Assembly (NCBI GenBank): GCA_016463765.1
Contig: JAEMQS010000018.1
Location: 1-64,000 of the forward strand
Direction of reading: 5' to 3'
Length of the DNA stretch: 64,000 nucleotides
DNA from: Solirubrobacteraceae bacterium
Lineage (GTDB): Bacteria > Actinomycetota > Thermoleophilia > Solirubrobacterales > Solirubrobacteraceae
The notes under the pieces were generated by a model that saw nothing but the letters and a program-made list of their open reading frames with translations, was not told the DNA's origin and searched no databases. Of the stretch, positions 9,939 to 35,736 are shown in pieces (position 1 is the stretch's first letter; every line of letters starts with the position of its first letter). Position numbers and translations under genes: made by a program.

Positions 9939-9965
9939 CGGGGCGGTCGCGCTGCGACCGCCCCG
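9939..9965. terminator. bidirectional hairpin terminator
   Basis: A 12-bp perfect stem (9939-9950 CGGGGCGGTCGC, 9954-9965) with a GCT triloop lies exactly between the stop codons of the convergent acyl-CoA dehydrogenase and TetR genes. It would serve both directions. Confidence 0.8.
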
Positions 9966-10595
9966 TCAGCGCGGCGCCGTCAGGACCGCGCACCACATCG
10001 CGTCGATGGGGCGCGTCACCGCTGCGCTGAGGAGTGACTTCTCGGCCAGCAGCGCCCGCATGATCAGCTCGTTGTTCCCGCCGACGATCGCCAACGAGAG
10101 CGGCGGCGTGATCCGATTCAGCTCGTCGTGCCGGCGACCCAGCCCGTCGCTGACGCGACGGACGAGCTTTGCGAAGCGCTCGGTGACGTCACGGCGGATC
10201 TCCAGCGCGGTGGGCCCAGCCGCCTGCGTGTCGACGACCAGCGACCGGGCCAGGGCCGCATCGGAGGCGAAGCGGGCGAGCATCGCGCGGTTGACCGCGC
10301 TGACGTGGTCGCGCCAGGGCAGCTCGGCTGCCAGCGCCGCCTGGTGCGCGGCCTCCATGTCGCCGATGGTCCGGTCCGACGTGATCGAGTAGAGCGCGAC
10401 GAAGCACTCCTCCTTGTCGGCGAAGTGGGCGTAGAAGGTCGACTTCGAGACGCGGGCGGCCTTGGCGATGTCCGCGATGCGGACGGACAGGTAGCCGTCG
10501 GCGGCCGCCCGCTCCGCCATGCCGCGCAGGATCTGGCTGCGCTGGCGCTGCTCGAGTTGCGAGCGCTGTTCGGGCGTGAGGACGGGCCGGGCCAT
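9966..10595 (-). CDS. TetR family transcriptional regulator
   Basis: A 209-residue TetR regulator starting MARPVLTPEQRSQLEQ. The DNA-binding helix-turn-helix covers about residues 40-65 (IADIAKAARVSKSTFYAHFADKEE). The ligand-binding C-terminal domain has no obvious relative. It is divergent from the livGFHMK-type ABC importer operon, 150 bp away, and that gap holds tandem GTAC-N6-GTAC sites. Local repression of the importer is the natural inference. The frame continues open to 12197, but this extension is antisense to livG and livF and is treated as a GC artefact; ATG 10595 is the start. Confidence 0.88.
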   Translation of the reverse strand: MARPVLTPEQRSQLEQRQRSQILRGMAERAAADGYLSVRIADIAKAARVSKSTFYAHFADKEECFVALYSITSDRTIGDMEAAHQAALAAELPWRDHVSAVNRAMLARFASDAALARSLVVDTQAAGPTALEIRRDVTERFAKLVRRVSDGLGRRHDELNRITPPLSLAIVGGNNELIMRALLAEKSLLSAAVTRPIDAMWCAVLTAPR

Positions 10596-10608
10596 GGAGC
10601 GGCGAAGA

Positions 10609-10696
10609 GTACTTCGTCGACGGTTTCCGGTTGCATCACGTCGCCGGAACCCGCTACGTTTGCAGTACCGGAGGGTACGCGGGTACTTCGTGGTAC
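10609..10696. promoter_or_regulatory. tandem GTAC-N6-GTAC operators between tetR and livG
   Basis: Two 14-bp dyads occur in tandem: GTACCGGAGGGTAC (10665-10678, with GTACC/GGTAC arms) and GTACTTCGTGGTAC (10683-10696). They are offset by 18 bp. A single related half, GTACTTCGT at 10609-10617, repeats the 10683-10691 sequence close to the tetR start codon. Placement in a divergent promoter region suggests cooperative TetR binding controlling both tetR and the importer. This is inference; no binding data. Confidence 0.6.
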
Positions 10697-10745
10697 GTCT
10701 CAGTGGATTCTGGCTACCACCTCCGGCGGGAGGAGAACCTGAAAC

Positions 10746-11531
10746 GTGGCACGACACGAGGATGATCCGCGCCTGCACGCAGCCGGCGTGACGGTGCAGT
10801 TCGGTGGCCTGACGGCCCTCGACGATGTCTCGCTCGACGTCGGTCGCGGGGAGGTCGTCGGCGTCATCGGCCCGAACGGGGCAGGCAAGACGACGCTGTT
10901 CAACGTCCTGTGCGGATTCGTCCGGCCCCAGGCGGGCACCGTCACGTGGCGTGGACAGTCGCTCGACGGCGTCCGGCCGCACCAGCTCGCCGGACTCGGG
11001 ATCGCGCGCACCCTCCAGGGCGTCGGCCTGTTCGCCGGGCTGACCGCAGCCGAGAACGTCATGGCCGCCGCGCCGCGCGCCGGTCGCCCCGGAGTCCTGA
11101 GCGGCCTGCTCGGGCTGCCACGCGCCGACCGTGACGAGCGCCGCGTGCGCGCCGGTGCGCTCGAGGTCCTCGAGCGCCTGGACGTGCGCGACGCCGCCGA
11201 CCGCCTCCCCGGCACCCTGCCCTACGGCGTGCAGAAGCGCGTGGGCCTCGCCCGTGCCCTCGCCGCGCGGCCCGATCTCCTGCTCCTCGACGAGCCCGCC
11301 GGCGGACTGAGTGGCGGGGACATCACTGACCTGGCGGGGCTCATCAAAGGGCTCCGCCGCGAGATGGGCGTCCTGCTCGTCGAGCACCACATGGACCTCG
11401 TCATGGAGGTCTGCGACCGCATCGTCGTGCTGGACTTCGGCAAGCGGATCGCTTCGGGGACCCCGGAGGAGATCCAGGCGGATCCTGCCGTGCTCGACGC
11501 CTATCTGGGAACGGCGGCCGCAGATGCTTGA
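10746..11531 (+). CDS. livG: branched-chain-type ABC transporter ATP-binding protein LivG
   Basis: A 261-residue ATPase of the LivG group, one of two nucleotide-binding subunits of a HAAT-type importer. Walker A is GPNGAGKT at 42-49. The signature LPYGVQKRVGLARAL has the degenerate PYGxQ form typical of LivG. Walker B is LLLLDEPAGGLS, and VEHHMDLVMEVCDRIVVLD with the C-terminal GKRIASGTPEEIQ completes the domain. It starts at GTG 10746, downstream of GGGAGGAG at 10728-10735. It overlaps livF by 8 bp and heads a five-gene operon. The substrate could be branched amino acids, or a carboxylate or acyl compound. Confidence 0.92.
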   Translation: MARHEDDPRLHAAGVTVQFGGLTALDDVSLDVGRGEVVGVIGPNGAGKTTLFNVLCGFVRPQAGTVTWRGQSLDGVRPHQLAGLGIARTLQGVGLFAGLTAAENVMAAAPRAGRPGVLSGLLGLPRADRDERRVRAGALEVLERLDVRDAADRLPGTLPYGVQKRVGLARALAARPDLLLLDEPAGGLSGGDITDLAGLIKGLRREMGVLLVEHHMDLVMEVCDRIVVLDFGKRIASGTPEEIQADPAVLDAYLGTAAADA

Positions 11532-24777: not shown

Positions 24778-25236
24778 GTGAGCTACACCACCGCCGAAGG
24801 CCACCAGCAGATCCTCGACGAGCTGGCGGCTGCGACGGACCGCCTCGCAGTGTCGCTCGCGTGCGTCGGCGCAGCGTACGACCTGCTCGACGAGCAGAGC
24901 GGCGACCGCCTCGAGACCGCGCTGTTCCGCCCGATCCAGCACGCGTATGGCACGGCGCAGCGCACGTACTCCGGCTTCGCCGCGCGGCACGGCCTGGAGG
25001 CGCGCAGCTTCGAGGAGGCATCGGCGGGCCACGTGTCCCAGGGCGCCCGTGCGTTCATCGACCGGGCCATGGACCAGGCCGCCGAGGCCGCGCACGTGAT
25101 CGCCGAGCTGCAGGACACCATGCTCCCGGTCGAGGTCGGCGACGCCGAGCTGCGTGCCGGCCTGGCGGAGGTCCGCGAGCGCGTCGAGGGTCTGCGTGCC
25201 GACGCGCGTGACTTCACGCGCACGCTCGGTCGATGA
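24778..25236 (+). CDS. hypothetical helical protein
   Basis: A 152-residue, almost wholly alpha-helical protein starting at GTG 24778 (VSYTTAEGHQQILDELAAAT). It has no membrane segments or recognised motif. Heptad-like patterns run through RDRLEVAL-type stretches and the C-terminal AELRAGLAEVRERVEGLRADA. The stop overlaps the ATG of the nitronate monooxygenase gene (ATGA), so both are probably in one operon. A role as a small four-helix accessory protein is possible but unsupported. Confidence 0.7.
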   Translation: MSYTTAEGHQQILDELAAATDRLAVSLACVGAAYDLLDEQSGDRLETALFRPIQHAYGTAQRTYSGFAARHGLEARSFEEASAGHVSQGARAFIDRAMDQAAEAAHVIAELQDTMLPVEVGDAELRAGLAEVRERVEGLRADARDFTRTLGR

Positions 25237-26288
25237 GCGTCACCCGGCTGTTCGGCATCGAGCACGCGGTCGTCCAAGGGCCGTTCGGCGGCGGACTGTC
25301 GTCGGTCGAGCTCGCGGGCGTGGTCTCCGACGCGGGCGGGCTCGGATCCTTCGGCGCCCACCACCTCGAACCGGCGGCGATCACCGAGGTCATCGGCCAG
25401 CTGCGCGCGCGGACGTCGCGGCCGTTCAACGTCAACCTGTGGGTCGACAACCACGACGCCGACGACGCCTGGCTCGCGTCCGACGCCTTCGACGCCCACG
25501 TCGCAGCGCTCACGCCGTGGTTCGACGAACTCGGGGTGACGCCGCCGCAGCGACCCGACCACGTCGTCATCCCCTTCATCGACCAGGCGGCCGCCGTGCT
25601 CGACGCGGCGCCGCCGGTCTTCAGCTTCGTCTTCGGCGTCCCCGACGACGGTTTGCTCGTCGCCTGCCGCGAGCGCGGGATCGTCACGGTCGGCACCGCG
25701 ACGACGGTGGACGAAGCCGTGGCGCTCGACGACGCCGGGGTGGACGCGATCGTCGCGACCGGCTTCGAGGCCGGCGGCCACCGCGTGTCGTGGCTGCGCA
25801 GCGCCGAGTCGTCGCTGACCGGGACCATGGCGCTCGTGCCGCAGGTCGCCGACGCGGTCAGCGTCCCCGTCATCGCCGCCGGCGGGATCGCCGACGCGCG
25901 CGGGGTCGCCGCCGCCCACGCGCTGGGCGCTGACGCCGTGCAGGTCGGCACCGCGTTCCTCGCGACCCGCGAGTCAAACACCACCGATGCGCACCGCGCC
26001 CTGCTCGGCACGCCCGAGTCCGCGCACACGGTGCTGACCCGCGCGTTCACCGGGCGGCTCGCACGCGGGTTCCCGAACCGGCTGCAGGCGGAGCTCGAGG
26101 CGAGTGCCACCGGCCCCGCGCCGTACCCGTTCCAGCACTGGCTGCTCGGGCACCTGCGCGAGGAGATCGTGCGGCAGGAGCGCACGGACCTCATCGCGCT
26201 GTGGGCCGGACAGGCCGCGCCGCTGGCCCGGTTGCGCAGCGCGGCGGACGTCTTCGCCGCGCTTGTGGCCTCGCCACACCGCGCCTGA
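25233..26288 (+). CDS. nitronate monooxygenase family FMN enzyme
   Basis: A 351-residue TIM-barrel flavoprotein of the NPD/nitronate monooxygenase group. Hallmarks are VVQGPFGGGLSSVELAGVVSDAGGLGSFG at the N-terminus, NVNLWV on strand 3, VATGFEAGGHRVSW with the active-site His, and the FMN phosphate-binding PVIAAGGIADARG and GADAVQVGTAFLATRES. The enzyme oxidises nitronates such as propionate-3-nitronate; some members act as enoyl reductases. It starts with an ATGA overlap to the preceding helical-protein gene. Confidence 0.9.
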   Translation: MSVTRLFGIEHAVVQGPFGGGLSSVELAGVVSDAGGLGSFGAHHLEPAAITEVIGQLRARTSRPFNVNLWVDNHDADDAWLASDAFDAHVAALTPWFDELGVTPPQRPDHVVIPFIDQAAAVLDAAPPVFSFVFGVPDDGLLVACRERGIVTVGTATTVDEAVALDDAGVDAIVATGFEAGGHRVSWLRSAESSLTGTMALVPQVADAVSVPVIAAGGIADARGVAAAHALGADAVQVGTAFLATRESNTTDAHRALLGTPESAHTVLTRAFTGRLARGFPNRLQAELEASATGPAPYPFQHWLLGHLREEIVRQERTDLIALWAGQAAPLARLRSAADVFAALVASPHRA

Positions 26289-26370: not shown

Positions 26371-28596
26371 ATGGCCGAGGAGCTGCCCACGTACTGCCGG
26401 ATCTGCGAGCCGCTGTGCGGCATGGTCGCGACCGTCGAAGACGGGAAGCTCGTGCAGCTGCGGCCCGACCGCGACCACCCGGTCTCCAAGGGCTTCGCGT
26501 GTCCGAAGGGCATCGCGTTCACCGAGGTCGTCAACGACCCCGACCGCGTCACCCACCCGCTCAAGCGCCAGCCCGACGGCACCTTCGAGCGCGTGAGCTG
26601 GGATGACGCCATGCGCGACATCAAGGCCCGCATGCTGCGCATCCACAGCGAGCACGGCGCCGACGCGATCGGCTGGTACTGGGGCAACCCGGGCGCGTTC
26701 AGCGCGTCGCACACGCTGTGGGTCGCGGCGTTCATGCTCGGCCTGCGCTCGCCGCACCTCTACACCGCCGGCTCGCAGGACGTCAACAACCGCTTCGTCG
26801 CCAGCGAGTTCCTCTACGGCAACCCGACGACCGCGCCCGTGCCCGACCTGCACCGCGCCGACCTCGTCGTCATCGTCGGCGCGAACCCGCTGGTCTCGCA
26901 CGGCAGCGTGCTGACCGCGCCGCGGATCAAGGAGGAGCTGCACGGCGTCGTCGACCGCGGGGGTCGCGTCGTCGTGGTCGACCCCCGGCGGACCGAGACC
27001 GCCCGCGCCTTCGCGTGGCAGCCGATCCGCCCCGACGGCGACGTGTTCATGCTCCTCAGCCTGCTGCACGTGCTGTTCGAGGACGGGCTCGCCGACGACG
27101 CCGCCATCGCGGCGCAGGCGCGCGGGGCGGAGCAGCTCCGCGAGCTGGCCCGGCCGTTCACGCCGGAGTCCACGGCCGAGCGGACCGGCATCGCGCCCGA
27201 CACCCTGCGCGAGCTCGCCCGAGCACTGGCGACCACCGAGCGCGCCGCGATGTACGGGCGCATCGGCACGTCGCTCGGCCGCAGCGGCACCCTGACCACG
27301 ATGCTGCTCGACGCGGTGAACCTCGTCGCCGGCAACCTCGACCGCGAGGGCGGGTCGATGTTCGGGACGCTCGGCACCCCGTTCGAACGGACCGCGCTGC
27401 AGCTCATCAAGGCGCTCGTCCCCGTCGGCCACGACCGCGGTCCGCGCTCGCGGATCGGCGGGTTCCCGGCCGTGCTCGCCTCGCGTCCCGCGGCGATCAT
27501 GGCGAAGGAGATGACGACGCCGGGCAAGGGACAGCTCCGCGCGCTATTCGTCTCCGCCGGCAACCCCGTGCTCAGCTGCCCGAACGGCGACGAGCTCGAG
27601 GACGCGCTCGACACGCTCGACCTCCAGGTCGCCATCGACTTCTACGTCAACGAGACCCACGCGCACGCCGACTACGTCCTGCCCGCCACGACGATGTACG
27701 AGCGCCAGGACTTCCCGATCCCGTTCCAGACCCTGTCGCTCACGCCCTTCCGCCAGGGGACCGACGCCGTCATCCCGCCCGTCGGCGAGGCGCGCGAGGA
27801 GTGGGAGGTCATCGACGAGCTCGCCAGCGCGCTGTGGCGCCGCACCCCGATGTTCTTCGGCGCCGAGCTGGTGCGCCGCACCGGGATGCTGACGCCGCGC
27901 CGGGCCATGGACGCGGTCGTCCGCCTTGCCGAGGGCGGCGACCTCTTCGGCCTGCGCCGGGGCGGCCTGACGTTCGCCCGGCTGCTGCGCGACCTGCCCC
28001 ACGGCCAGGTCATCGCGCCGCACCTGCGCGCCGGGGCGCTGCGGACCGTGAACCTCCACGGCGACCGCAAGGTCCGCCTCGACGCCCCGCAGTTCGCGTC
28101 GGAGATCGCCCGCCTCGCCGAACGCCCTGGCGACGACCCCGCGTTCCCGCTGCGGCTCATCGGCATGCGCGAGCTGCGCAGCGAGAACTCGTGGATGCAC
28201 AACGCGCCGCTGCTGCTGCGCGGCGGGCGCAAGCACCTCGCCCGCATGCACCCTGACGACGCCGCCGCGGTGGGCGCGGCCGAGGGCGACCGGATCCGCG
28301 TGACCTCCAAGCACGGGGAGATCGAACTGGCCGTCACGCTGACCGACGACCTCGTCCCCGGGGTGATCGCGATCCCGCACGGCTGGGGCCACAAGGGCCG
28401 CGGCGGGTGGCGCAAGGCGAACACCGCCGACGCCGGCAGCGGCGGCGCGAACGTCAACCGGCTCATGAGCAGCGACCCCGCCGACGTCGAGCCGGTCGCC
28501 GGCATGGCGAACCTCACCGGTGTGCCGGTCCGCGCGGAGGTGGTCGCGCCCGCGGCCCAGGCACCCGAGCGGGAGGCTGCCACACTGGGGGCATGA
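26371..28596 (+). CDS. molybdopterin-dependent oxidoreductase (FdhF/NapA-like)
   Basis: A 741-residue member of the DMSO reductase superfamily. The N-terminal [4Fe-4S] motif is CRICEPLCGM (C9, C12, C16) with C44 in FACPKG. The molybdopterin-binding domains follow: WYWGNPGAFS, the loop GSQDVNNRFVASEFLYGNP, VVIVGANPLVSHGS, and the C-terminal dinucleotide-binding barrel with RSENSWMHN and IPHGWGHKGRGG. No Sec or Cys is evident at the metal-ligand loop, unlike formate dehydrogenases. The start follows GGAGGAGAGG. No membrane or electron-transfer subunit is nearby; the next small gene overlaps by ATGA. The substrate is unknown. Confidence 0.88.
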   Translation: MAEELPTYCRICEPLCGMVATVEDGKLVQLRPDRDHPVSKGFACPKGIAFTEVVNDPDRVTHPLKRQPDGTFERVSWDDAMRDIKARMLRIHSEHGADAIGWYWGNPGAFSASHTLWVAAFMLGLRSPHLYTAGSQDVNNRFVASEFLYGNPTTAPVPDLHRADLVVIVGANPLVSHGSVLTAPRIKEELHGVVDRGGRVVVVDPRRTETARAFAWQPIRPDGDVFMLLSLLHVLFEDGLADDAAIAAQARGAEQLRELARPFTPESTAERTGIAPDTLRELARALATTERAAMYGRIGTSLGRSGTLTTMLLDAVNLVAGNLDREGGSMFGTLGTPFERTALQLIKALVPVGHDRGPRSRIGGFPAVLASRPAAIMAKEMTTPGKGQLRALFVSAGNPVLSCPNGDELEDALDTLDLQVAIDFYVNETHAHADYVLPATTMYERQDFPIPFQTLSLTPFRQGTDAVIPPVGEAREEWEVIDELASALWRRTPMFFGAELVRRTGMLTPRRAMDAVVRLAEGGDLFGLRRGGLTFARLLRDLPHGQVIAPHLRAGALRTVNLHGDRKVRLDAPQFASEIARLAERPGDDPAFPLRLIGMRELRSENSWMHNAPLLLRGGRKHLARMHPDDAAAVGAAEGDRIRVTSKHGEIELAVTLTDDLVPGVIAIPHGWGHKGRGGWRKANTADAGSGGANVNRLMSSDPADVEPVAGMANLTGVPVRAEVVAPAAQAPEREAATLGA

Positions 28597-28915: not shown

Positions 28916-30313
28916 GTGCGCACGCTGGTTCTCACCGCCCTTCTGACCCTCGCCGCGGCGGTCCCCGCCACCGCGGCCGAGTTCCAGGTCGACAGCACCG
29001 CGCCCGGGAACGGCAACTGCGCCGCGCCCGGTCAGTGCACGCTGCGCCAGGCGATCGCGGACGCCAAGACGGCGCCGGGACGCGACACCATCCGCGTCCC
29101 GCCCGGCACGTACGACCAGACCGGCCAGGACCTCATCGTGTCCATCGGCGAGCAGGTCGAGATCGTCGGCGCCGATCCGCGCACCACCGTGATCCGTGAG
29201 GTCAGCGGCGGCGACGGCCGCGTCTTCCTCGTCGAGCAGGACGCGACGCTCGACCTGTCCGGCGTGACCCTCACCGGGTCGCGCAACGCGTCAGCCGTGC
29301 TGCTGTTCGGCTCGGGCATGACCTTCCGGGCGACGAACGTGGTCTTCACCGGGAACACCGCGACCAACGGCGCCGCCATCGACGCGACAGGCGGTGCGGT
29401 GGAGCTGGCCCGCAGCACGCTCACGGGCAACGTCGCGACCGGGAAGGGCGGCGCGATCTACCTCGGCGGCGCCGGGTCACGGGTGACCGCCGTGAACACG
29501 ACCATCTCCGGCAACACGGCACCCGACGGGGCGGGCATCGCCGCGGATCAGGGCCTGGCGACCGTGCGCGGAACGACAGTCGCGAACAACACCGGGGCGC
29601 CCGACGTCCGGGGCGCGATCGCGGCGCACGCGTCGATCGTCGGCTCGTGCGCTGGGGCGATCGGGAGCCTCGGGGCGAACGCCAGCGCCGACCCCGCGTG
29701 CGCGATGGAGCGCACCGCGCCGCTGCAGCTCGGCGCCGTGGGCGACCACGGCGGAGCAACGTCGACCATGGTCCCGGCGGCCGGTAGCCCGGCGGTCGAT
29801 GCCGACCCGTCGTGCGCGGCGGGCACGTCGGACCAGCGCGGTCTCGCCCGGCCGCAGGGCGCGGCCTGCGACGCCGGTGCCGTCGAGGTGCCCGCCCCCG
29901 GCATGGCGCCGCCGCCGTCCACCACGCCCGTGCCCTTCGCCCTCACCGCGCTGCGCGTCACCCCGAACCCCTGGCGGATCGCCCGGGGCGCGGCCCTCAT
30001 CACGGTCCGCGCGAACATCGCCGGCACCGTGCGGTTCACCGTCCAGCGGGCGCGTGGCGGGCGGCGCGTGGGTGGCCGCTGCGCCGCGCCGACCCGGGCC
30101 AACCGCCGCCGCGCGGCGTGCACGCGCTTCGTCGCGGTCCGCGGGAGCTTCACCCGGGCGGTCGGGCCCGGCACCACCACGATCCGGTTCGCCGGGCGTC
30201 TCGGCGGTCGGCAGCTCGGGGTCGGCCGCTACCGCCTCACCGCCCGCGCGAGCGCCGGCGAGGCCACCCGCCGCGCGGGGTTCACCGTGGTGCGGGCCGC
30301 GCGCCGCCGCTGA
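28916..30313 (+). CDS. secreted parallel beta-helix protein
   Basis: A 465-residue exported protein beginning at GTG 28916 (VRTLVLTALLTLAAAVPATAAE signal). The mature start DSTAPGNGNCAAPGQCTLRQAI is the common opening of bacterial right-handed beta-helix proteins with a choice-of-anchor Q region (SPAVDADPSC...DQRGLARPQG...CDAGAVE). Residues 340 to the end are an Arg-rich beta-sandwich (RFTVQRARGGRRVGGRC and GVGRYRLTARASAG) that recurs in related secreted proteins of this lineage. No clear catalytic residues for a polysaccharide lyase are visible, so a structural or adhesive role is likely. Confidence 0.8.
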   Translation: MRTLVLTALLTLAAAVPATAAEFQVDSTAPGNGNCAAPGQCTLRQAIADAKTAPGRDTIRVPPGTYDQTGQDLIVSIGEQVEIVGADPRTTVIREVSGGDGRVFLVEQDATLDLSGVTLTGSRNASAVLLFGSGMTFRATNVVFTGNTATNGAAIDATGGAVELARSTLTGNVATGKGGAIYLGGAGSRVTAVNTTISGNTAPDGAGIAADQGLATVRGTTVANNTGAPDVRGAIAAHASIVGSCAGAIGSLGANASADPACAMERTAPLQLGAVGDHGGATSTMVPAAGSPAVDADPSCAAGTSDQRGLARPQGAACDAGAVEVPAPGMAPPPSTTPVPFALTALRVTPNPWRIARGAALITVRANIAGTVRFTVQRARGGRRVGGRCAAPTRANRRRAACTRFVAVRGSFTRAVGPGTTTIRFAGRLGGRQLGVGRYRLTARASAGEATRRAGFTVVRAARRR

Positions 30314-30364: not shown

Positions 30365-30378
30365 GTACCGATCTGTAC
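30365..30378. promoter_or_regulatory. GTAC-N6-GTAC dyad upstream of the polyester hydrolase
   Basis: The 14-bp GTACCGATCTGTAC lies 70 bp before the polyester-hydrolase start codon, within GGTAC-CGATCT-GTACC. It has the same architecture as the tandem dyads upstream of livG at 10665-10696. It could be a regulator site, but the tetramer is common in Tyr-rich coding sequence, so confidence is limited. Confidence 0.4.
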
Positions 30379-30447
30379 CGTGCCCGCGCGCCCTGTCCGG
30401 CGTTCCCTGTCCACGGCAGCTCCGCTGCCTGTCTCACGAGGTTCTCG

Positions 30448-31305
30448 ATGCGCCTTCGCCATCTCCTGATGGCCGCGTTTGCGCTGCTCGCATTCGCGGT
30501 CACACCGGCCCCTGCCGCCGCCAACCCCTTCGCCAAGGGCCCCGACCCCACCGCCGCGTCGGTCCGCGCCGCCCAGGGTCCCTACGCCGTGACCGCCGTC
30601 CGCGTCACCGAGGCCGCGTCCAACGGCTTCGGGACCGGCATGATCTGGCGGCCGGTGACCACGACCGGTGAGAAGTTCGGCATCGTCGCCATGGCGCCCG
30701 GCTTCACCGAGGACATGACCGCCACCGGCTGGCTCGGCCAGAAGCTCGCCTCGAACGGCTTCGTCGTCATGGCGTTCAACACGAACACCCCGTTCGACCT
30801 GCCCCCGAGCCGCGGCAAGGCGCTGCTGCTCGCGCTCGACCACATGAAGGTCGCGGCCTCGACGAAGAACATCGTCGACCCGACCCGCCAGGCGGTCGTC
30901 GGCCACTCCATGGGCGGCGGCGGCACGCTCTCGGCCTCGAAGGCCCGCCCCGCGCTGAAGGCCGCCGTCGGCCTCGCCTCGTGGCACCAGGACGGCACCT
31001 GGCCCGAGATCACGGTGCCGAACCTCCAGATCGGCATCGCGGACGACGTCATCGCGCCGACCTTCATGCACGTCATCCCGTTCCACCGCTCGATCCCGGC
31101 CACGACGCCGAAGGCCTACATCGAGTACCCCAGCGGCGGGCATTTCGCGACCAACAGCTACACGCCGCGCAACATGGCGAGCGTGCTGACCTGGCTCAAG
31201 CGCTTCGTCGACGACGACACGCGCTACTCGCAGTTCATCTGCCCCGGACCCGCGGCGCTGAACGCCGGCGAGTTCTCGACGTACAGCTCCAGCTGCCCCT
31301 TCTAG
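30448..31305 (+). CDS. secreted cutinase/PETase-like polyester hydrolase
   Basis: A 285-residue exported alpha/beta hydrolase. The signal peptide is about residues 1-25; the mature protein starts ANPFAKGPDPT, almost identical in pattern to actinobacterial cutinases and PET hydrolases. The catalytic triad is Ser154 (GHSMGGGG), Asp200 (DDVIAPT) and His232 (GGHFATN). Oxyanion-hole positions are Phe86 (APGFT, usually Tyr) and Met155. The conserved Trp is in ASWHQDG. The C-terminal KRFVDDDTRYSQFICPGP and SSSCPF supply the disulfide pair Cys265-Cys283. A role in hydrolysing cutin, suberin-like or other polyesters outside the cell is inferred from family. An ACGAGG ribosome site precedes ATG 30448. 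Confidence 0.92.
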   Translation: MRLRHLLMAAFALLAFAVTPAPAAANPFAKGPDPTAASVRAAQGPYAVTAVRVTEAASNGFGTGMIWRPVTTTGEKFGIVAMAPGFTEDMTATGWLGQKLASNGFVVMAFNTNTPFDLPPSRGKALLLALDHMKVAASTKNIVDPTRQAVVGHSMGGGGTLSASKARPALKAAVGLASWHQDGTWPEITVPNLQIGIADDVIAPTFMHVIPFHRSIPATTPKAYIEYPSGGHFATNSYTPRNMASVLTWLKRFVDDDTRYSQFICPGPAALNAGEFSTYSSSCPF

Positions 31306-31321: not shown

Positions 31322-31356
31322 GCGTCCCGCGGCCCCCAGACCGGGCCGCGGGACGC
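31322..31356. terminator. strong bidirectional hairpin terminator
   Basis: A 14-bp perfect GC-rich stem (31322-31335 and 31343-31356) with a 7-nt loop, CCAGACC, lies between the convergent polyester hydrolase and acyl-CoA dehydrogenase genes. Confidence 0.8.
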
Positions 31357-31391: not shown

Positions 31392-32555
31392 TCACAAGCC
31401 CATCGTCTTGCCGATGAGCTCCTTCATGATCTCGTTCGTGCCCGCGTAGATCCGGCCGACGCGCGCGTCGATCCACGCCTGGCCGATCTTGTACTCCTTG
31501 GTGTAGCCGTAGCCGCCGTGCAGCTGCAGGCACTCGTCGGCGACCTTGCAGAGCAGATCGGTCGTGTAGTACTTGGCCATCGCGGCCTCGTCGACCCCGC
31601 ACGTGCCGGCGACGTACTTGCTGATGCACTGGTCGACGAAGGCCCGGGTGATCGTGATCTCCGTCTTCATCTCGGCCATCTTGAAGCGGGAGTTCTGGAA
31701 CGTCCCGATCGGGCGGCCGAACGCCTTGCGCTCCTTGACGTACTCCAGCGTCTGCGCCAGGACCGTCTCGCAGCCCGCGACCGAGCTGACGGCGAGCGTC
31801 AGGCGCTCCGGCACCAGGCGGGCGACGAGCTGGTAGAAGCCCGAGCCCTCCTCGCCGAGGAGGTTCTCCGCGGGGACGACGCAGTCGTTGAAGAACAGCT
31901 CCGCGGTGTCCGACGCGTGCTGGCCGAGCTTCTCGATCTGCTTGCCGCGCTCGAAGCCGTCGAACCCGCGCTCGACGATGAAGAGCGACAGGCCGCCGTG
32001 CGGGTCGTCGCTCGTGCGCGCGGCGACGATGACGAGGTCGGCGTTGATGCCGTTCGTGATGAACGTCTTCGCGCCGTTGAGGATGTACGTGTCGCCGTCG
32101 CGCTTCGCGCTGGTCGCGATCGCGGCGAGGTCGGAGCCCGTGCCCGGCTCGGTCATCGCGACCGCGGCGATGAGCTCGCCCGACGCCATGCCCGGCAGCC
32201 AGCGCGCCTTCTGCTCCTCGGTGCAGCTCGCCATGAAGTAGGGCAGGCAGACGTCGGTGTGCAGCAGCGGGCCCGCCCACGCGTCGCCGACCCCGGAGGT
32301 CGCGGCCTCCTCCATGAGGACGACGTTGAAGCGCCAGTCGTCGACGCCCTGCCCGCCGTACTCCTCGGGCACCTCCATCGCCAGGAAGCCGTGCTCGGCG
32401 GCCTTGGCGAACATCTCGCGCGGGATGATCCCCGCCGCGTTCCAGTCGTCGTAGTGCGGCTTGACCTCCGCCTCGAGGAAGCGGCGGAAGCTCTCGCGGT
32501 AGTCGTCGTGCTCGGACTCGAAGATCGTGCGTCCGGAAGTGGTGGCTGTGGCCAT
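31392..32555 (-). CDS. acyl-CoA dehydrogenase, LCAD/IVD-type
   Basis: A 387-residue FAD enzyme introducing the alpha-beta double bond in acyl-CoA. The flavin signature is AVAMTEPGTGSD at 131-142. The C-terminal RIYAGTNEIMKELIGKTMGL has Ala where medium-chain enzymes carry the catalytic Glu (YEGT). As in long-chain and isovaleryl-CoA dehydrogenases, the base is probably Glu250 in VPERLTLAV. Start 32555 gives MATATTSGRT; upstream codons overlap the promoter region. A TetR gene is divergent 62 bp away and likely regulates it. Confidence 0.93.
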   Translation of the reverse strand: MATATTSGRTIFESEHDDYRESFRRFLEAEVKPHYDDWNAAGIIPREMFAKAAEHGFLAMEVPEEYGGQGVDDWRFNVVLMEEAATSGVGDAWAGPLLHTDVCLPYFMASCTEEQKARWLPGMASGELIAAVAMTEPGTGSDLAAIATSAKRDGDTYILNGAKTFITNGINADLVIVAARTSDDPHGGLSLFIVERGFDGFERGKQIEKLGQHASDTAELFFNDCVVPAENLLGEEGSGFYQLVARLVPERLTLAVSSVAGCETVLAQTLEYVKERKAFGRPIGTFQNSRFKMAEMKTEITITRAFVDQCISKYVAGTCGVDEAAMAKYYTTDLLCKVADECLQLHGGYGYTKEYKIGQAWIDARVGRIYAGTNEIMKELIGKTMGL

Positions 32556-32617
32556 GGCCTCAGGATACATACCGAACGCTTGCTTTGTAGATATCTGTGT
32601 AGGGTCGGAGACGCCCG

Positions 32618-33238
32618 ATGTCGACGACCGAACCCCGGCCCATCCGCCGCACGCAGGAGGCACGCACCGCCGAGACGCGGCGCAAGCTGCTCGACGCGAC
32701 GCTCACGAGCCTGCTCGAGGTGGGCTACGCCGGGACGACCACCCGGCGCGTCGCCGAGATCGCCGGGGTCTCCCAGGGCGCGCAGACCCACCACTTCCCG
32801 CGCCGGGTCGACCTCGTCGGCGCGGCGCTCGAACAGGCGGCCGACCAGCGCATCGCCGACCTGCGCGCACGCATGGCCGACCTCCCCACCGAGCGGCGAG
32901 AGCGCACCCGCGCGATCCTCGACCTCATCTGGGAGGACTTCGGCAGCCCGATCTTCACCATCTTCGTGAAGCTCTGGGTCGCCGCCGCCGACGACCGCGA
33001 GCTCTACGACCGGCTCGTCCCGCTCGAGCGCCAGCTCTCCCGGGAGATCGCGGCGGTGGTCCCCGACCTCGCAGGCGACGACCCGCGGCCCGAGGACCTC
33101 AACGCGCGCGTGAACCTCGCGCTCTCAGCCCTGCGCGGCCTGGCCCTCTCCCAGGCCTTCGAGCCGACCGCCCGCGAGCCGCGCGACCCGTGGCCCGACG
33201 CCCGGCCGGTCCTCGAGCGGATCCTGCTCGGCGACTGA
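32618..33238 (+). CDS. TetR family transcriptional regulator
   Basis: A 206-residue TetR regulator. After a basic N-terminus, the helix-turn-helix is TTRRVAEIAGVSQGAQTHHFP (residues about 42-62). The C-terminal ligand domain includes LIWEDFGSPIFTIFVKLWVAAADD. It is divergent from the LCAD/IVD-type acyl-CoA dehydrogenase. The 62-bp gap contains the palindrome AGATATCT (32589-32596) and a looser dyad TAC-N14-GTA just before it, candidate operator parts. The likely ligand is an acyl-CoA, by analogy with other regulators next to ACAD genes. Confidence 0.88.
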   Translation: MSTTEPRPIRRTQEARTAETRRKLLDATLTSLLEVGYAGTTTRRVAEIAGVSQGAQTHHFPRRVDLVGAALEQAADQRIADLRARMADLPTERRERTRAILDLIWEDFGSPIFTIFVKLWVAAADDRELYDRLVPLERQLSREIAAVVPDLAGDDPRPEDLNARVNLALSALRGLALSQAFEPTAREPRDPWPDARPVLERILLGD

Positions 33239-33244
33239 GCCGCG

Positions 33245-34561
33245 TCAGCGGCGCCGCAGCTCGCGCCACTCGTCGATCGCGTGCTCCTCGCGGAGCATGT
33301 CGGTCCCGGAGTCGTCGAAGTCGAGGTCGTGGGCGGCGTCCGAGCACCAGAAGCGCGGGTGGCGGTCGAGCCAGCGCTGCGCGTCGGCCTGGCCGATCTC
33401 GATGAGCGCCGAGGCGAAGTCGGGGTCGAACAGCACAAAGCTCATGAGCTCACCGCGGCGGCCGCCGTCCAGCAGCCGGGAGAGCAGCGGGAAGTCCGGG
33501 TCGCGCAGCGCCCGCAGGCCGCCGTACTTCTCGTCGAGGATGCGCTCGGCGACGTCGGCGAGCGTCGTGCGCGTCTCGGGCGCGACGAGCGCGTAGGAGA
33601 TCTTGCGGTACGACGGCCGGCCGCGGGCGTTGCGGTACGCCCGTGCGGACGACGACATCCCGCCGATGCTGTCGGCGAAGAACGAGTTGATCGCCGCGAG
33701 CTGGTGCAGGTCGTCGGCGATCTGGTCGACCATCAGGCCGTCGAGCACGTTCGCGAGCACGTCGGTCATCCGCGGGCGCCGGGCGAGTTCCTCCTCCGGC
33801 GGTGTGGCGAACGGCTTGAAGCCGATCACGATCACCCGGTCGGCACCCAGGGCGAGCGCGGGTGCCAGCGGCGTGTTCAGGCGCGTGGCCCCGTCGATGT
33901 AGTGGCCCGCCGCACGCGCCGGGCGTGTGACCTCCACGGGAGGGAACAGGAGCGGCATGGCCGCGGACGCGCGGACGTGCTGCCCGGACAGCGTCACCTT
34001 CTGGAAGCGGATGCCGTCGGTGCTCTTGTTGCGCGGCGCCGGCCCGCGCCGCTCGACGAACGCCGTGGGGCGTCCGGTCGACAGCGACGTCGCGACGACG
34101 CACACCGCGTCGAGCGTGCCGTTGCGGACGTTGCGGTGCAGCGCCATCCAGTCGATCCACTTCTCGAGGCTCGACGCCATCGGGCGCGGATCGAGCAGCG
34201 ACGCCAGGCGCACCCCGGGCACCCCGAGTGCCTCGGCCACGCCGCGCGCCGCGGACACGGCCAGGCCGGGGCCGAGCACCGGGCTGATCACGTCGGTCTT
34301 GCGCAGGCTGCGCCAGTGCTCGAGCGAATGGTCCACCTGCTCGTCCATCGGCCGGTGCACCACCGAGGCGGCAGCGGCCGCGTTGATGGCGCCGACGCTC
34401 GTGCCGCAGATGACCGACACCTTCTCCCCGCGCGCCTCGAGCGCCGGGAGCAGCACGGACAGCGCGCCCGCCTCATAGGCGCCGCGCGCTCCTCCTCCGG
34501 GCAGGACGAGCGCCACCTTGGGCGCAGTGCCGTTGCTCTCCATCGCCATCCGGTCAGGCAT
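33245..34561 (-). CDS. patatin-like phospholipase
   Basis: A 438-residue patatin-domain protein. The oxyanion-hole loop is PGGGARGAYEAG (21-32), the nucleophile is Ser55 in GTSVGAIN, and the Asp of the Ser-Asp dyad is in YIDGATR. A C-terminal extension of about 150 residues (YRKISYALVAPETRTTLADV onward) is characteristic of a bacterial patatin subgroup with unknown partners. No signal peptide is seen, so it is probably a cytoplasmic or peripheral lipid acyl hydrolase. Start ATG 34561 is the first in a plausible context; ATG 34549 is also possible. It converges on the TetR gene with a 6-bp gap. Confidence 0.9.
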   Translation of the reverse strand: MPDRMAMESNGTAPKVALVLPGGGARGAYEAGALSVLLPALEARGEKVSVICGTSVGAINAAAAASVVHRPMDEQVDHSLEHWRSLRKTDVISPVLGPGLAVSAARGVAEALGVPGVRLASLLDPRPMASSLEKWIDWMALHRNVRNGTLDAVCVVATSLSTGRPTAFVERRGPAPRNKSTDGIRFQKVTLSGQHVRASAAMPLLFPPVEVTRPARAAGHYIDGATRLNTPLAPALALGADRVIVIGFKPFATPPEEELARRPRMTDVLANVLDGLMVDQIADDLHQLAAINSFFADSIGGMSSSARAYRNARGRPSYRKISYALVAPETRTTLADVAERILDEKYGGLRALRDPDFPLLSRLLDGGRRGELMSFVLFDPDFASALIEIGQADAQRWLDRHPRFWCSDAAHDLDFDDSGTDMLREEHAIDEWRELRRR

Positions 34562-34862
34562 TGTCTCGCGCCCACCCGACGGCGCTAGGTCCGGACGGTC
34601 CACCCGGCGTGCCGGTGTTTCGACATCGCGTCGAGCCTCGGCCGGAACCCTCCCCGGAAATGGCGAGGGCGCCTCCGAAGAGGCGCCCTCGTTGCGTCCT
34701 TGCCCTCCGAGGCAAGTCCGTCGCATCCAGCCGATCCCCAGCGGCCGTGATGCGAACCCTGTCCGAGGTGCCTATCGGGCGGCGCGCCTGAGGACCCAAG
34801 GCCGCCCGCGATCGGTTCGTACACACGTCCACGAAACGGCCTGGGGGCCCGCAGCGCGGGCG
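34562..34862. other. intergenic region with two hairpins
   Basis: This 301-bp stretch lies between the phzF-like stop and the patatin start, both on the minus strand. I see no convincing gene: short frames on both strands have no family features. It contains the hairpin at 34664-34691 and a second smaller hairpin at 34699-34716 (CTTGCC, loop CTCCGA, GGCAAG). The part adjacent to the patatin gene presumably holds its promoter, but no clear -10/-35 pair stands out. Confidence 0.5.
34664..34691 (-). terminator. 12-bp hairpin terminator after phzF-like gene
   Basis: A perfect 12-bp stem (34664-34675 CGAGGGCGCCTC and 34680-34691) is closed by a CGAA loop (TTCG on the minus strand, a very stable tetraloop). 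On the minus strand it is followed by CCATTTCC. It lies 170 bp after the phzF-like stop codon and 100 bp before the patatin start. Confidence 0.7.
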
Positions 34863-35714
34863 TCAGACGGCGAGGGTCGCGTCGGCGACGACGACCACGT
34901 CGCCGCCCACCCGGACCAGGTCGCCCGCGATCTCGGCGGAGAGCCGCGACGGGCGGGCCATCTCCACGCCCTGGTCGATCTCGATCGACGACGCCACGCC
35001 CGAGCGGTGCAGCAGCGCGACGAGCGGCCCGGCGGCCGAGCCGGTCGCCGGATCCTCGACCACGAGGCCCCGGTCGAGGTAGAACGACCGGGCCCTGACC
35101 CGCCCGGCGTCCCCGACGGCGGCGACGTACGCCACGATCGCCCCGAGCTCGTCGAGCAGTCCACCGAGTGCCCCGGCCTCGAGCTTCAACCGCGGCAGCA
35201 GCTTCCCGCCGCGCACGAGCACCAGCAGGTGGGGCGCGCCGGTGGAGGCCACCTGCGGCGGCAGCTCGGCCACGAGGTCCGCCGCCGTGAGGCCCAGTGC
35301 ACCCGCGACGCGTTCGGGGTCGGGCGTCGCGCCGTAGTGAACCGGTCCCTGCAGCATGGTCGCGTGCGCCGTGACGCCGCTCAGCTCCACCTCGACGGGC
35401 TGCAGGCCCGCCCGCGTCTGCTGGACGTAACGGGCCGTCCGTACGCCTGACTTCCGGGCATGGGCGACCGCGGTGCCGAGCGACGGGTGGCCGGCGAACG
35501 GCATCTCCCCAGGCGGCGAGAAGATCCGGTTGCGGTAGTCGGCGCCCTCGACGGTGGCCCGCTGGATGAACGTCGTCTCCGAGAGCCGCGTCTCGCGGGC
35601 GAGCGCGAGCATGAACGCGTCGGTGAGCTCGTCGGCGTCGTGGATGACCGCGAGACCGTTGCCCGTCAGGGGCCGCGACGTGAAGACGTCCAGCCAGGTG
35701 ACCGCCCGGCGCAC
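34863..35714 (-). CDS. PhzF family isomerase/epimerase
   Basis: A 283-residue protein of the diaminopimelate-epimerase-like PhzF fold. The start GTG 35714 gives VRRAVTWLDVFTSRPLTGNG, matching the family opening (VDVFTxxPLxGN). The conserved acidic residue sits in LARETRLSETTF, and the anion-binding DPATGSAAG block is present near residue 225. The frame is open further upstream, but that overlaps the acidic-protein gene. It lies 22 bp downstream of that gene. In PhzF the fold catalyses a 1,3-hydrogen shift; the substrate here is unknown and there are no phenazine genes nearby. Confidence 0.87.
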   Translation of the reverse strand: MRRAVTWLDVFTSRPLTGNGLAVIHDADELTDAFMLALARETRLSETTFIQRATVEGADYRNRIFSPPGEMPFAGHPSLGTAVAHARKSGVRTARYVQQTRAGLQPVEVELSGVTAHATMLQGPVHYGATPDPERVAGALGLTAADLVAELPPQVASTGAPHLLVLVRGGKLLPRLKLEAGALGGLLDELGAIVAYVAAVGDAGRVRARSFYLDRGLVVEDPATGSAAGPLVALLHRSGVASSIEIDQGVEMARPSRLSAEIAGDLVRVGGDVVVVADATLAV

Positions 35715-35736
35715 GTTCAGAACGCCGTGGACGGGG

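What the first reader, a model, noticed from the sequence alone, without database searches (positions are those of the whole stretch)
30448..31305. Cutinase/PETase-family polyester hydrolase with Phe in the oxyanion-hole position
The mature protein matches the PET-hydrolase family over its full length, with the triad Ser154-Asp200-His232, the conserved Trp and the C-terminal disulfide. The usual Tyr of the GYT oxyanion loop is Phe86 (APGFT), and the Trp loop reads ASWHQDG. Reports from Solirubrobacterales-like organisms are few to my knowledge, so this would extend the known diversity of polyester hydrolases.
Basis: partly seen in the sequence, partly recalled or inferred. Interest (0 to 1): 0.6.

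Follow-up and report, generated by a model that had tools for sequence, protein, structure and literature searches.

The report
Ordinary secreted PETase-family polyester hydrolase
This is an intact gene for a probably secreted enzyme of the well-known cutinase/PET-hydrolase family; the phenylalanine flagged as unusual is common and already characterised in relatives, so the find is a new, untested member of a known family from a bacterial lineage where such enzymes are rare.

Summary
The gene is real and intact: 30448-31305 (+), 285 aa, secretion-signal-like N-terminus, PF12740 (PETase) over 262 residues at E = 4e-85. The triad Ser154-Asp200-His232, Met155, Trp179, Phe86 and the only two cysteines (265, 283) are as described, in precursor numbering. 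An AlphaFold model (pLDDT 88) matches PHL7, TfCut2 and Cut190 structures at TM 0.95-0.98. The sequence meets every feature of the type I (TfCut2/Cut190-like) subgroup; it is not IsPETase-like and not a dienelactone hydrolase.

The advertised oddity is not odd. Phe at the oxyanion/aromatic-clamp position occurs in 25 of 56 sampled sequences (window included), in Cut190 (Phe106), PET27 and a solved Thermomonospora curvata enzyme, and a 2018 PET-hydrolase screen allows 'F or Y' there. Modestly new: such enzymes are rare in this lineage (9 of 146 genomes of the family), and the window enzyme with its 84% syntenic ortholog is a deep branch, at most 50% identical to anything else examined, with Ser before the conserved Trp. 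Its place in the tree is unresolved, so PET activity cannot be inferred. Best call: secreted broad-range polyester/ester hydrolase; new member of a known kind.

The parts
30448..31305 (+). PF12740 (PETase-family) secreted serine ester hydrolase, 285 aa plus stop
30448..30522 (+). Sec-type signal peptide (residues 1-25, AxA-type end; not run through a signal predictor)
   Evidence: sequence; mature starts of solved relatives align from residues 23-26; low pLDDT in 1-21
30703..30705 (+). Phe86, oxyanion/aromatic-clamp position (APGFT)
30901..30915 (+). GHSMG nucleophile elbow: Ser154, oxyanion Met155, His153 (type I marker)
30979..30984 (+). Ser178-Trp179: conserved Trp preceded by Ser, unique to this gene and its ortholog among those aligned
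31045..31047 (+). Asp200 of the triad
31141..31146 (+). His232 of the triad and Phe233 (type I marker)
31240..31296 (+). C-terminal Cys265...Cys283, the only two cysteines, presumed disulfide
   Evidence: nearly invariant in relatives
30415..30429 (+). 15-nt inverted repeat GGCAGC-TCC-GCTGCC in the 5' leader, identical in the ortholog, one copy per genome; role unknown
   Evidence: predicted RNA folding of the leader not better than shuffles (z -0.65)
31322..31356 (.). perfect 14-bp inverted repeat between convergent genes, identical in the ortholog; terminator-like but no T run
   Evidence: fold z -4.0

Best explanation
A secreted, stand-alone alpha/beta serine hydrolase of the bacterial cutinase/PET-hydrolase family (PF12740), type I (TfCut2/Cut190-like). 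Ser154, activated by His232 and Asp200, attacks ester carbonyls in an open surface cleft. The backbone amides of Phe86 and Met155 stabilise the oxyanion, and Phe86, Trp179 and Ile202 grip the acyl part. It most likely hydrolyses extracellular aliphatic polyesters and lipid esters (cutin/suberin-like material or oligomers); action on PET would be incidental. Shown: gene, family, residues, predicted fold, conservation under purifying selection. Inferred: export, substrate, catalytic roles by analogy with Cut190/TfCut2/IsPETase.
For: PF12740 4e-85 over the full profile; 41-48% identity and TM 0.95-0.98 (normalised by target) to solved polyester hydrolases PHL7, TfCut2, Cut190, the T. curvata enzyme and Est119; all catalytic and binding residues present; matches the listed criteria of the 2018 PET-hydrolase screen; type I markers His153 and Phe233, no extra loop, no second disulfide; syntenic ortholog with dN/dS about 0.31.
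Against: No activity data. The closest characterised enzymes are only 38-48% identical, and several enzymes with the same Phe-Met-Trp set or its variants were inactive on PET (PMC8767016). The NCBIfam BHET-hydrolase model is matched at 306 bits but below its 520-bit cut-off. Neighbours (nitronate monooxygenase-like, molybdopterin oxidoreductase, acyl-CoA dehydrogenase, TetR, patatin) give no sign of a polyester pathway.
Confidence: 0.85

Rival explanations
1. A small-substrate esterase or lipase of the same family (triglyceride or short-chain ester hydrolase, PAF-acetylhydrolase-like) with no useful polyester activity.
For: The family includes the Streptomyces exfoliatus lipase (1jfr); weak PF03403 match; patatin-like lipase gene nearby; deep branch away from the characterised polyesterases sampled, with Ser178 instead of Pro/Gly/Ala, and Thr87 replaced by Leu in the ortholog.
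Against: Open-cleft residues (Phe86, Trp179, Ile202, His153, Phe233, His208) are all those of polyesterases, and known members are typically promiscuous.
Confidence: 0.3
2. An effective PET hydrolase, in the sense of IsPETase, LCC or PHL7.
For: Passes the sequence criteria of the 2018 PET-hydrolase screen; same subsite I residue set as PET27 and Cut190.
Against: Type I with His153/Phe233, changes reported to lower PET activity when put into IsPETase (PMC5785972); same-motif enzymes inactive on PET exist. No MHETase-type tannase domain was found in the genome, but the control genomes stayed silent too, so this carries no weight.
Confidence: 0.12
3. A dienelactone-hydrolase-clade protein and not a polyesterase.
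For: Shares the alpha/beta hydrolase fold; PF01738 is detectable at 12.6 bits.
Against: PF12740 scores 285.8 bits; nucleophile Ser instead of the Cys of dienelactone hydrolases; disulfide cysteines and C-terminal DxDxRYxxFxC motif present.
Confidence: 0.01

Closest known systems
Cut190 (Saccharomonospora viridis cutinase; PDB 5zno, 7cef, 7cts)
   Same: Oxyanion pair Phe-Met, Trp of subsite I, His/Phe of subsite II (type I), one C-terminal disulfide, same fold (TM 0.95-0.97)
   Different: 44-45% identity; Ser178 before the Trp; separate deep branch (unresolved); Ca2+ dependence not examined
Thermomonospora curvata alpha/beta hydrolase (PDB 7yko/7ykp/7ykq)
   Same: Best PDB match by sequence (E 4e-81), also SPGFT, type I
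   Different: 48% identity over 257 residues
TfCut2 / Thermobifida cutinases, PHL7, LCC
   Same: Full-length homologs with the same triad and disulfide; TM 0.95-0.98 for the first two groups
   Different: Tyr at the clamp position in LCC and TfCut2; 43-45% identity
IsPETase (type IIb)
   Same: Triad, Met, Trp, C-terminal disulfide
   Different: 38.5% identity; window protein lacks Trp159, Ser238, the 3-residue loop extension and the second disulfide
PET27 (Aequorivita, Bacteroidetes)
   Same: Phe-Met-Trp binding set reported in PMC8767016
   Different: Different phylum; sequence not compared here

Membership tests
Pfam PF12740 (PETase / cutinase-type polyester hydrolases) | Score above curated cut-off over the full profile | tested here: met
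   285.8 bits against 28; profile 2-263 of 263
Pfam PF12740 (PETase / cutinase-type polyester hydrolases) | Ser-Asp-His triad in GxSMGGGG context, one C-terminal disulfide pair, DxDxRYxxFxC before the first Cys | tested here: met
   GHSMGGGG, D200, H232, C265/C283, DDDTRYSQFIC
Pfam PF12740 (PETase / cutinase-type polyester hydrolases) | alpha/beta hydrolase fold of solved members | tested here: met
   Predicted model, pLDDT 88; TM up to 0.98 to PHL7, PSH1
PET-hydrolase candidate criteria of Danso et al. 2018 (PMC5881046) | F or Y at 62; W or Y at 157; I or V at 180; optional F or W at 211; two C-terminal Cys | tested here: met
   F86, W179, I202, F233, C265/C283; mapped by alignment, not by their HMM numbering
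Type I PET-degrading enzymes (Joo et al. 2018, PMC5785972) | His at Trp159, Phe/Tyr at Ser238, no loop extension, no second disulfide | tested here: met
   H153, F233, loop 18 residues as in LCC against 21 in IsPETase, only two Cys
Type II (IsPETase-like) | Second disulfide and extended loop | tested here: not met
   Only two cysteines; loop 3 residues shorter
NCBIfam NF051441 BHET hydrolase equivalog | Score above 520 bits | tested here: not met
   306.1 bits
Dienelactone hydrolase PF01738 | Score above cut-off; Cys nucleophile | tested here: not met
   12.6 bits against 21; Ser nucleophile
Functional polyester / PET hydrolase | Measured hydrolysis of a polyester | not testable with these tools
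   Needs the purified enzyme

The most novel reading that the evidence does not exclude
The window enzyme and its relatives in this bacterial family form an old, lineage-restricted branch of PF12740, outside every characterised enzyme sampled here, with a retuned binding site (Ser before the Trp in the window pair; variable residue after the clamp aromatic: T, L or V; clamp aromatic F or W) and a natural substrate not yet known for the family.
Probability: 0.25. Interest if true: 0.4.

Novelty: new member of a known kind. Interest (0 to 1): 0.2.

Why it matters
It adds an intact, conserved polyester-hydrolase candidate from a lineage where such genes are rare (9 of 146 genomes of the family; 8 of 399 sampled from the class) and for which no characterised enzyme was found in the open-access literature searched. 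It could serve as a divergent scaffold for enzyme screening, but nothing in the sequence promises unusual chemistry.

Tried and rejected
Dienelactone-hydrolase reading: rejected by profile scores. 'Phe is unusual': rejected by counts and literature. A clean lineage-specific clade: the trees support it (99/96, 98/97), but moving the window pair to the other side is not rejected (p-AU 0.51; p-AU 0.157 for joining it to the 30-row set with the characterised enzymes), so it is left open; no Bacteroidetes or further proteobacterial enzymes were in the tree. MHETase partner: PF07519 not found, but the control genomes were silent too, so uninformative. Sigma-70 promoter and intrinsic terminator scans found nothing. 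In the first tree I mislabelled PDB 7yko as the Rhizobacter enzyme and 8etx as a natural enzyme; one search shows they are from Thermomonospora curvata and an ancestral reconstruction, corrected.

Full report
OBSERVATION. The open reading frame at 30448-31305 (+) is exactly as described: ATG at 30448, stop ending at 31305, 285 aa. The residues named are correct in precursor numbering: Phe86, Ser154, Met155, Trp179, Asp200, His232, and the only two cysteines, 265 and 283. The N-terminus (MRLRHLLMAAFALLAFAVTPAPAAA) looks like a Sec signal peptide and the mature starts of solved relatives align from about residues 23-26. Pfam gives PF12740 'PETase' with E = 4.1e-85, profile positions 2-263 of 263.

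GENE IS REAL AND KEPT. A syntenic ortholog lies in another species of the same genus (G001): 84% protein identity without gaps, with flanking DNA collinear at 82-88% on both sides. Differences fall by codon position as 35/22/59 and NG86 gives dN 0.099, dS 0.322 (ratio about 0.31), which indicates purifying selection. There is one copy in the window's genome. In the family, 9 of 146 genomes carry a homolog; 8 of 399 genomes sampled from the class carry PF12740. A third member of the genus (G002) carries only a 46%-identical homolog, with no collinear flank found.

FAMILY AND FOLD. Sequence matches to solved structures are bacterial cutinases, lipases and PET hydrolases, best a Thermomonospora curvata enzyme (7ykq, E 4e-81, organism). 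Identities over the mature part: T. curvata 48%, LCC 45%, the T. fusca locus L095 45%, IsPETase 38.5%. The AlphaFold model (56-sequence alignment, mean pLDDT 88, pTM 0.86) matches PHL7, PSH1, Cut190 and TfCut2 at TM 0.95-0.98 normalised by target. By the classification of Joo et al. 2018 (PMC5785972) it is type I: His153 at the Trp159 position, Phe233 at the Ser238 position, loop as short as in LCC (18 against 21 residues in IsPETase), no second disulfide.

THE PHENYLALANINE. The headline feature is ordinary. Across 56 aligned sequences (window plus 55 relatives from named genomes) the position is Tyr in 31 and Phe in 25; among homologs from the window's own order it is Phe, Trp or Tyr. The search criteria of Danso et al. 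2018 list 'F,Y62' (PMC5881046). Cut190 forms its oxyanion hole with Met177 and Phe106, and changing Phe106 to Tyr lowered its polyester turnover (as reported in PMC9039725). PET27 has the same Phe-Met-Trp set, and PET30 Phe-Met-Tyr (PMC8767016). The same paper lists enzymes with such sets that were inactive on PET.

PHYLOGENY. Two maximum-likelihood trees put the window protein and its ortholog with other homologs of the same bacterial family (99/96 with 70 rows; 98/97 with 44 rows after removing the worst long branch and adding two sequences), while LCC, IsPETase, the T. fusca locus and T. curvata fall on the other side. The AU tests do not reject moving the pair to that other side (p 0.51) or even to the 30-row set with the characterised enzymes (p 0.157). 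Long branches are involved. The conclusion is only that it is a divergent PF12740 protein of unresolved deep position; PET activity should not be transferred to it by homology.

NEIGHBOURHOOD. Left: nitronate monooxygenase-like (25233-26288), molybdopterin oxidoreductase (26371-28596), beta-helix repeat protein (about 28931-30313). Right: convergent acyl-CoA dehydrogenase (31392-32663 -), TetR regulator (32618-33238 +), patatin-like phospholipase (33245-34726 -), PhzF-like protein (34863-35735 -). No polyester-degradation cluster; the gene appears to stand alone. The leader contains GGCAGC-TCC-GCTGCC, 18 bases before the ATG, identical in the ortholog and present once in each of the two genomes; as RNA the leader is not more stable than shuffles. 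A perfect 14-bp inverted repeat at 31322-31356, identical in the ortholog, sits between the convergent genes and folds strongly (z -4.0), perhaps a bidirectional terminator, although it lacks a T run.

VERDICT. An intact, conserved, probably secreted type I polyester/ester hydrolase; observation confirmed, novelty claim not. Literature searches in the open-access library found no characterised PET hydrolase from Thermoleophilia or Solirubrobacterales, which is weak evidence of absence, and the host's name was not verified.

Noticed in passing
window 30406-30429: CCTGTCC-AC-GGCAGCTCCGCTGCC in the 5' leader of the hydrolase gene is conserved in the syntenic ortholog (inverted-repeat core identical) and was found once per genome; possible operator or leader element.
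   Followed up: partly
window 30365-30379: A GTACC-N5-GTACC direct repeat about 70-80 bases upstream of the start codon is also kept in the ortholog, as is TATCACTA further upstream; possible regulator site or promoter parts.
   Followed up: no
window 31322-31356: Perfect 14-bp inverted repeat between convergent genes, identical in the ortholog, strong predicted hairpin without T run.
   Followed up: partly
window 28931-30313: A beta-helix (polymorphic-outer-membrane-like repeat) protein gene occupies this gap; in the sister genome (L099 about 9960-10760) the same gap holds unrelated DNA that reads like a band-7/SPFH-type membrane protein gene (judged by eye, not searched), so this is a variable slot next to the hydrolase.
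   Followed up: no
L005, L006 (G022): Two PF12740 homologs from the same bacterial family have Trp at the oxyanion/clamp position (APGWTE), rarer than Phe or Tyr; that genome carries four PF12740 genes.
   Followed up: no
L004 / L103 (G039): A PF12740 gene in another family of the order groups with Lentzea/Saccharothrix sequences in one tree (89/90); horizontal transfer or contamination of the assembly.
   Followed up: no
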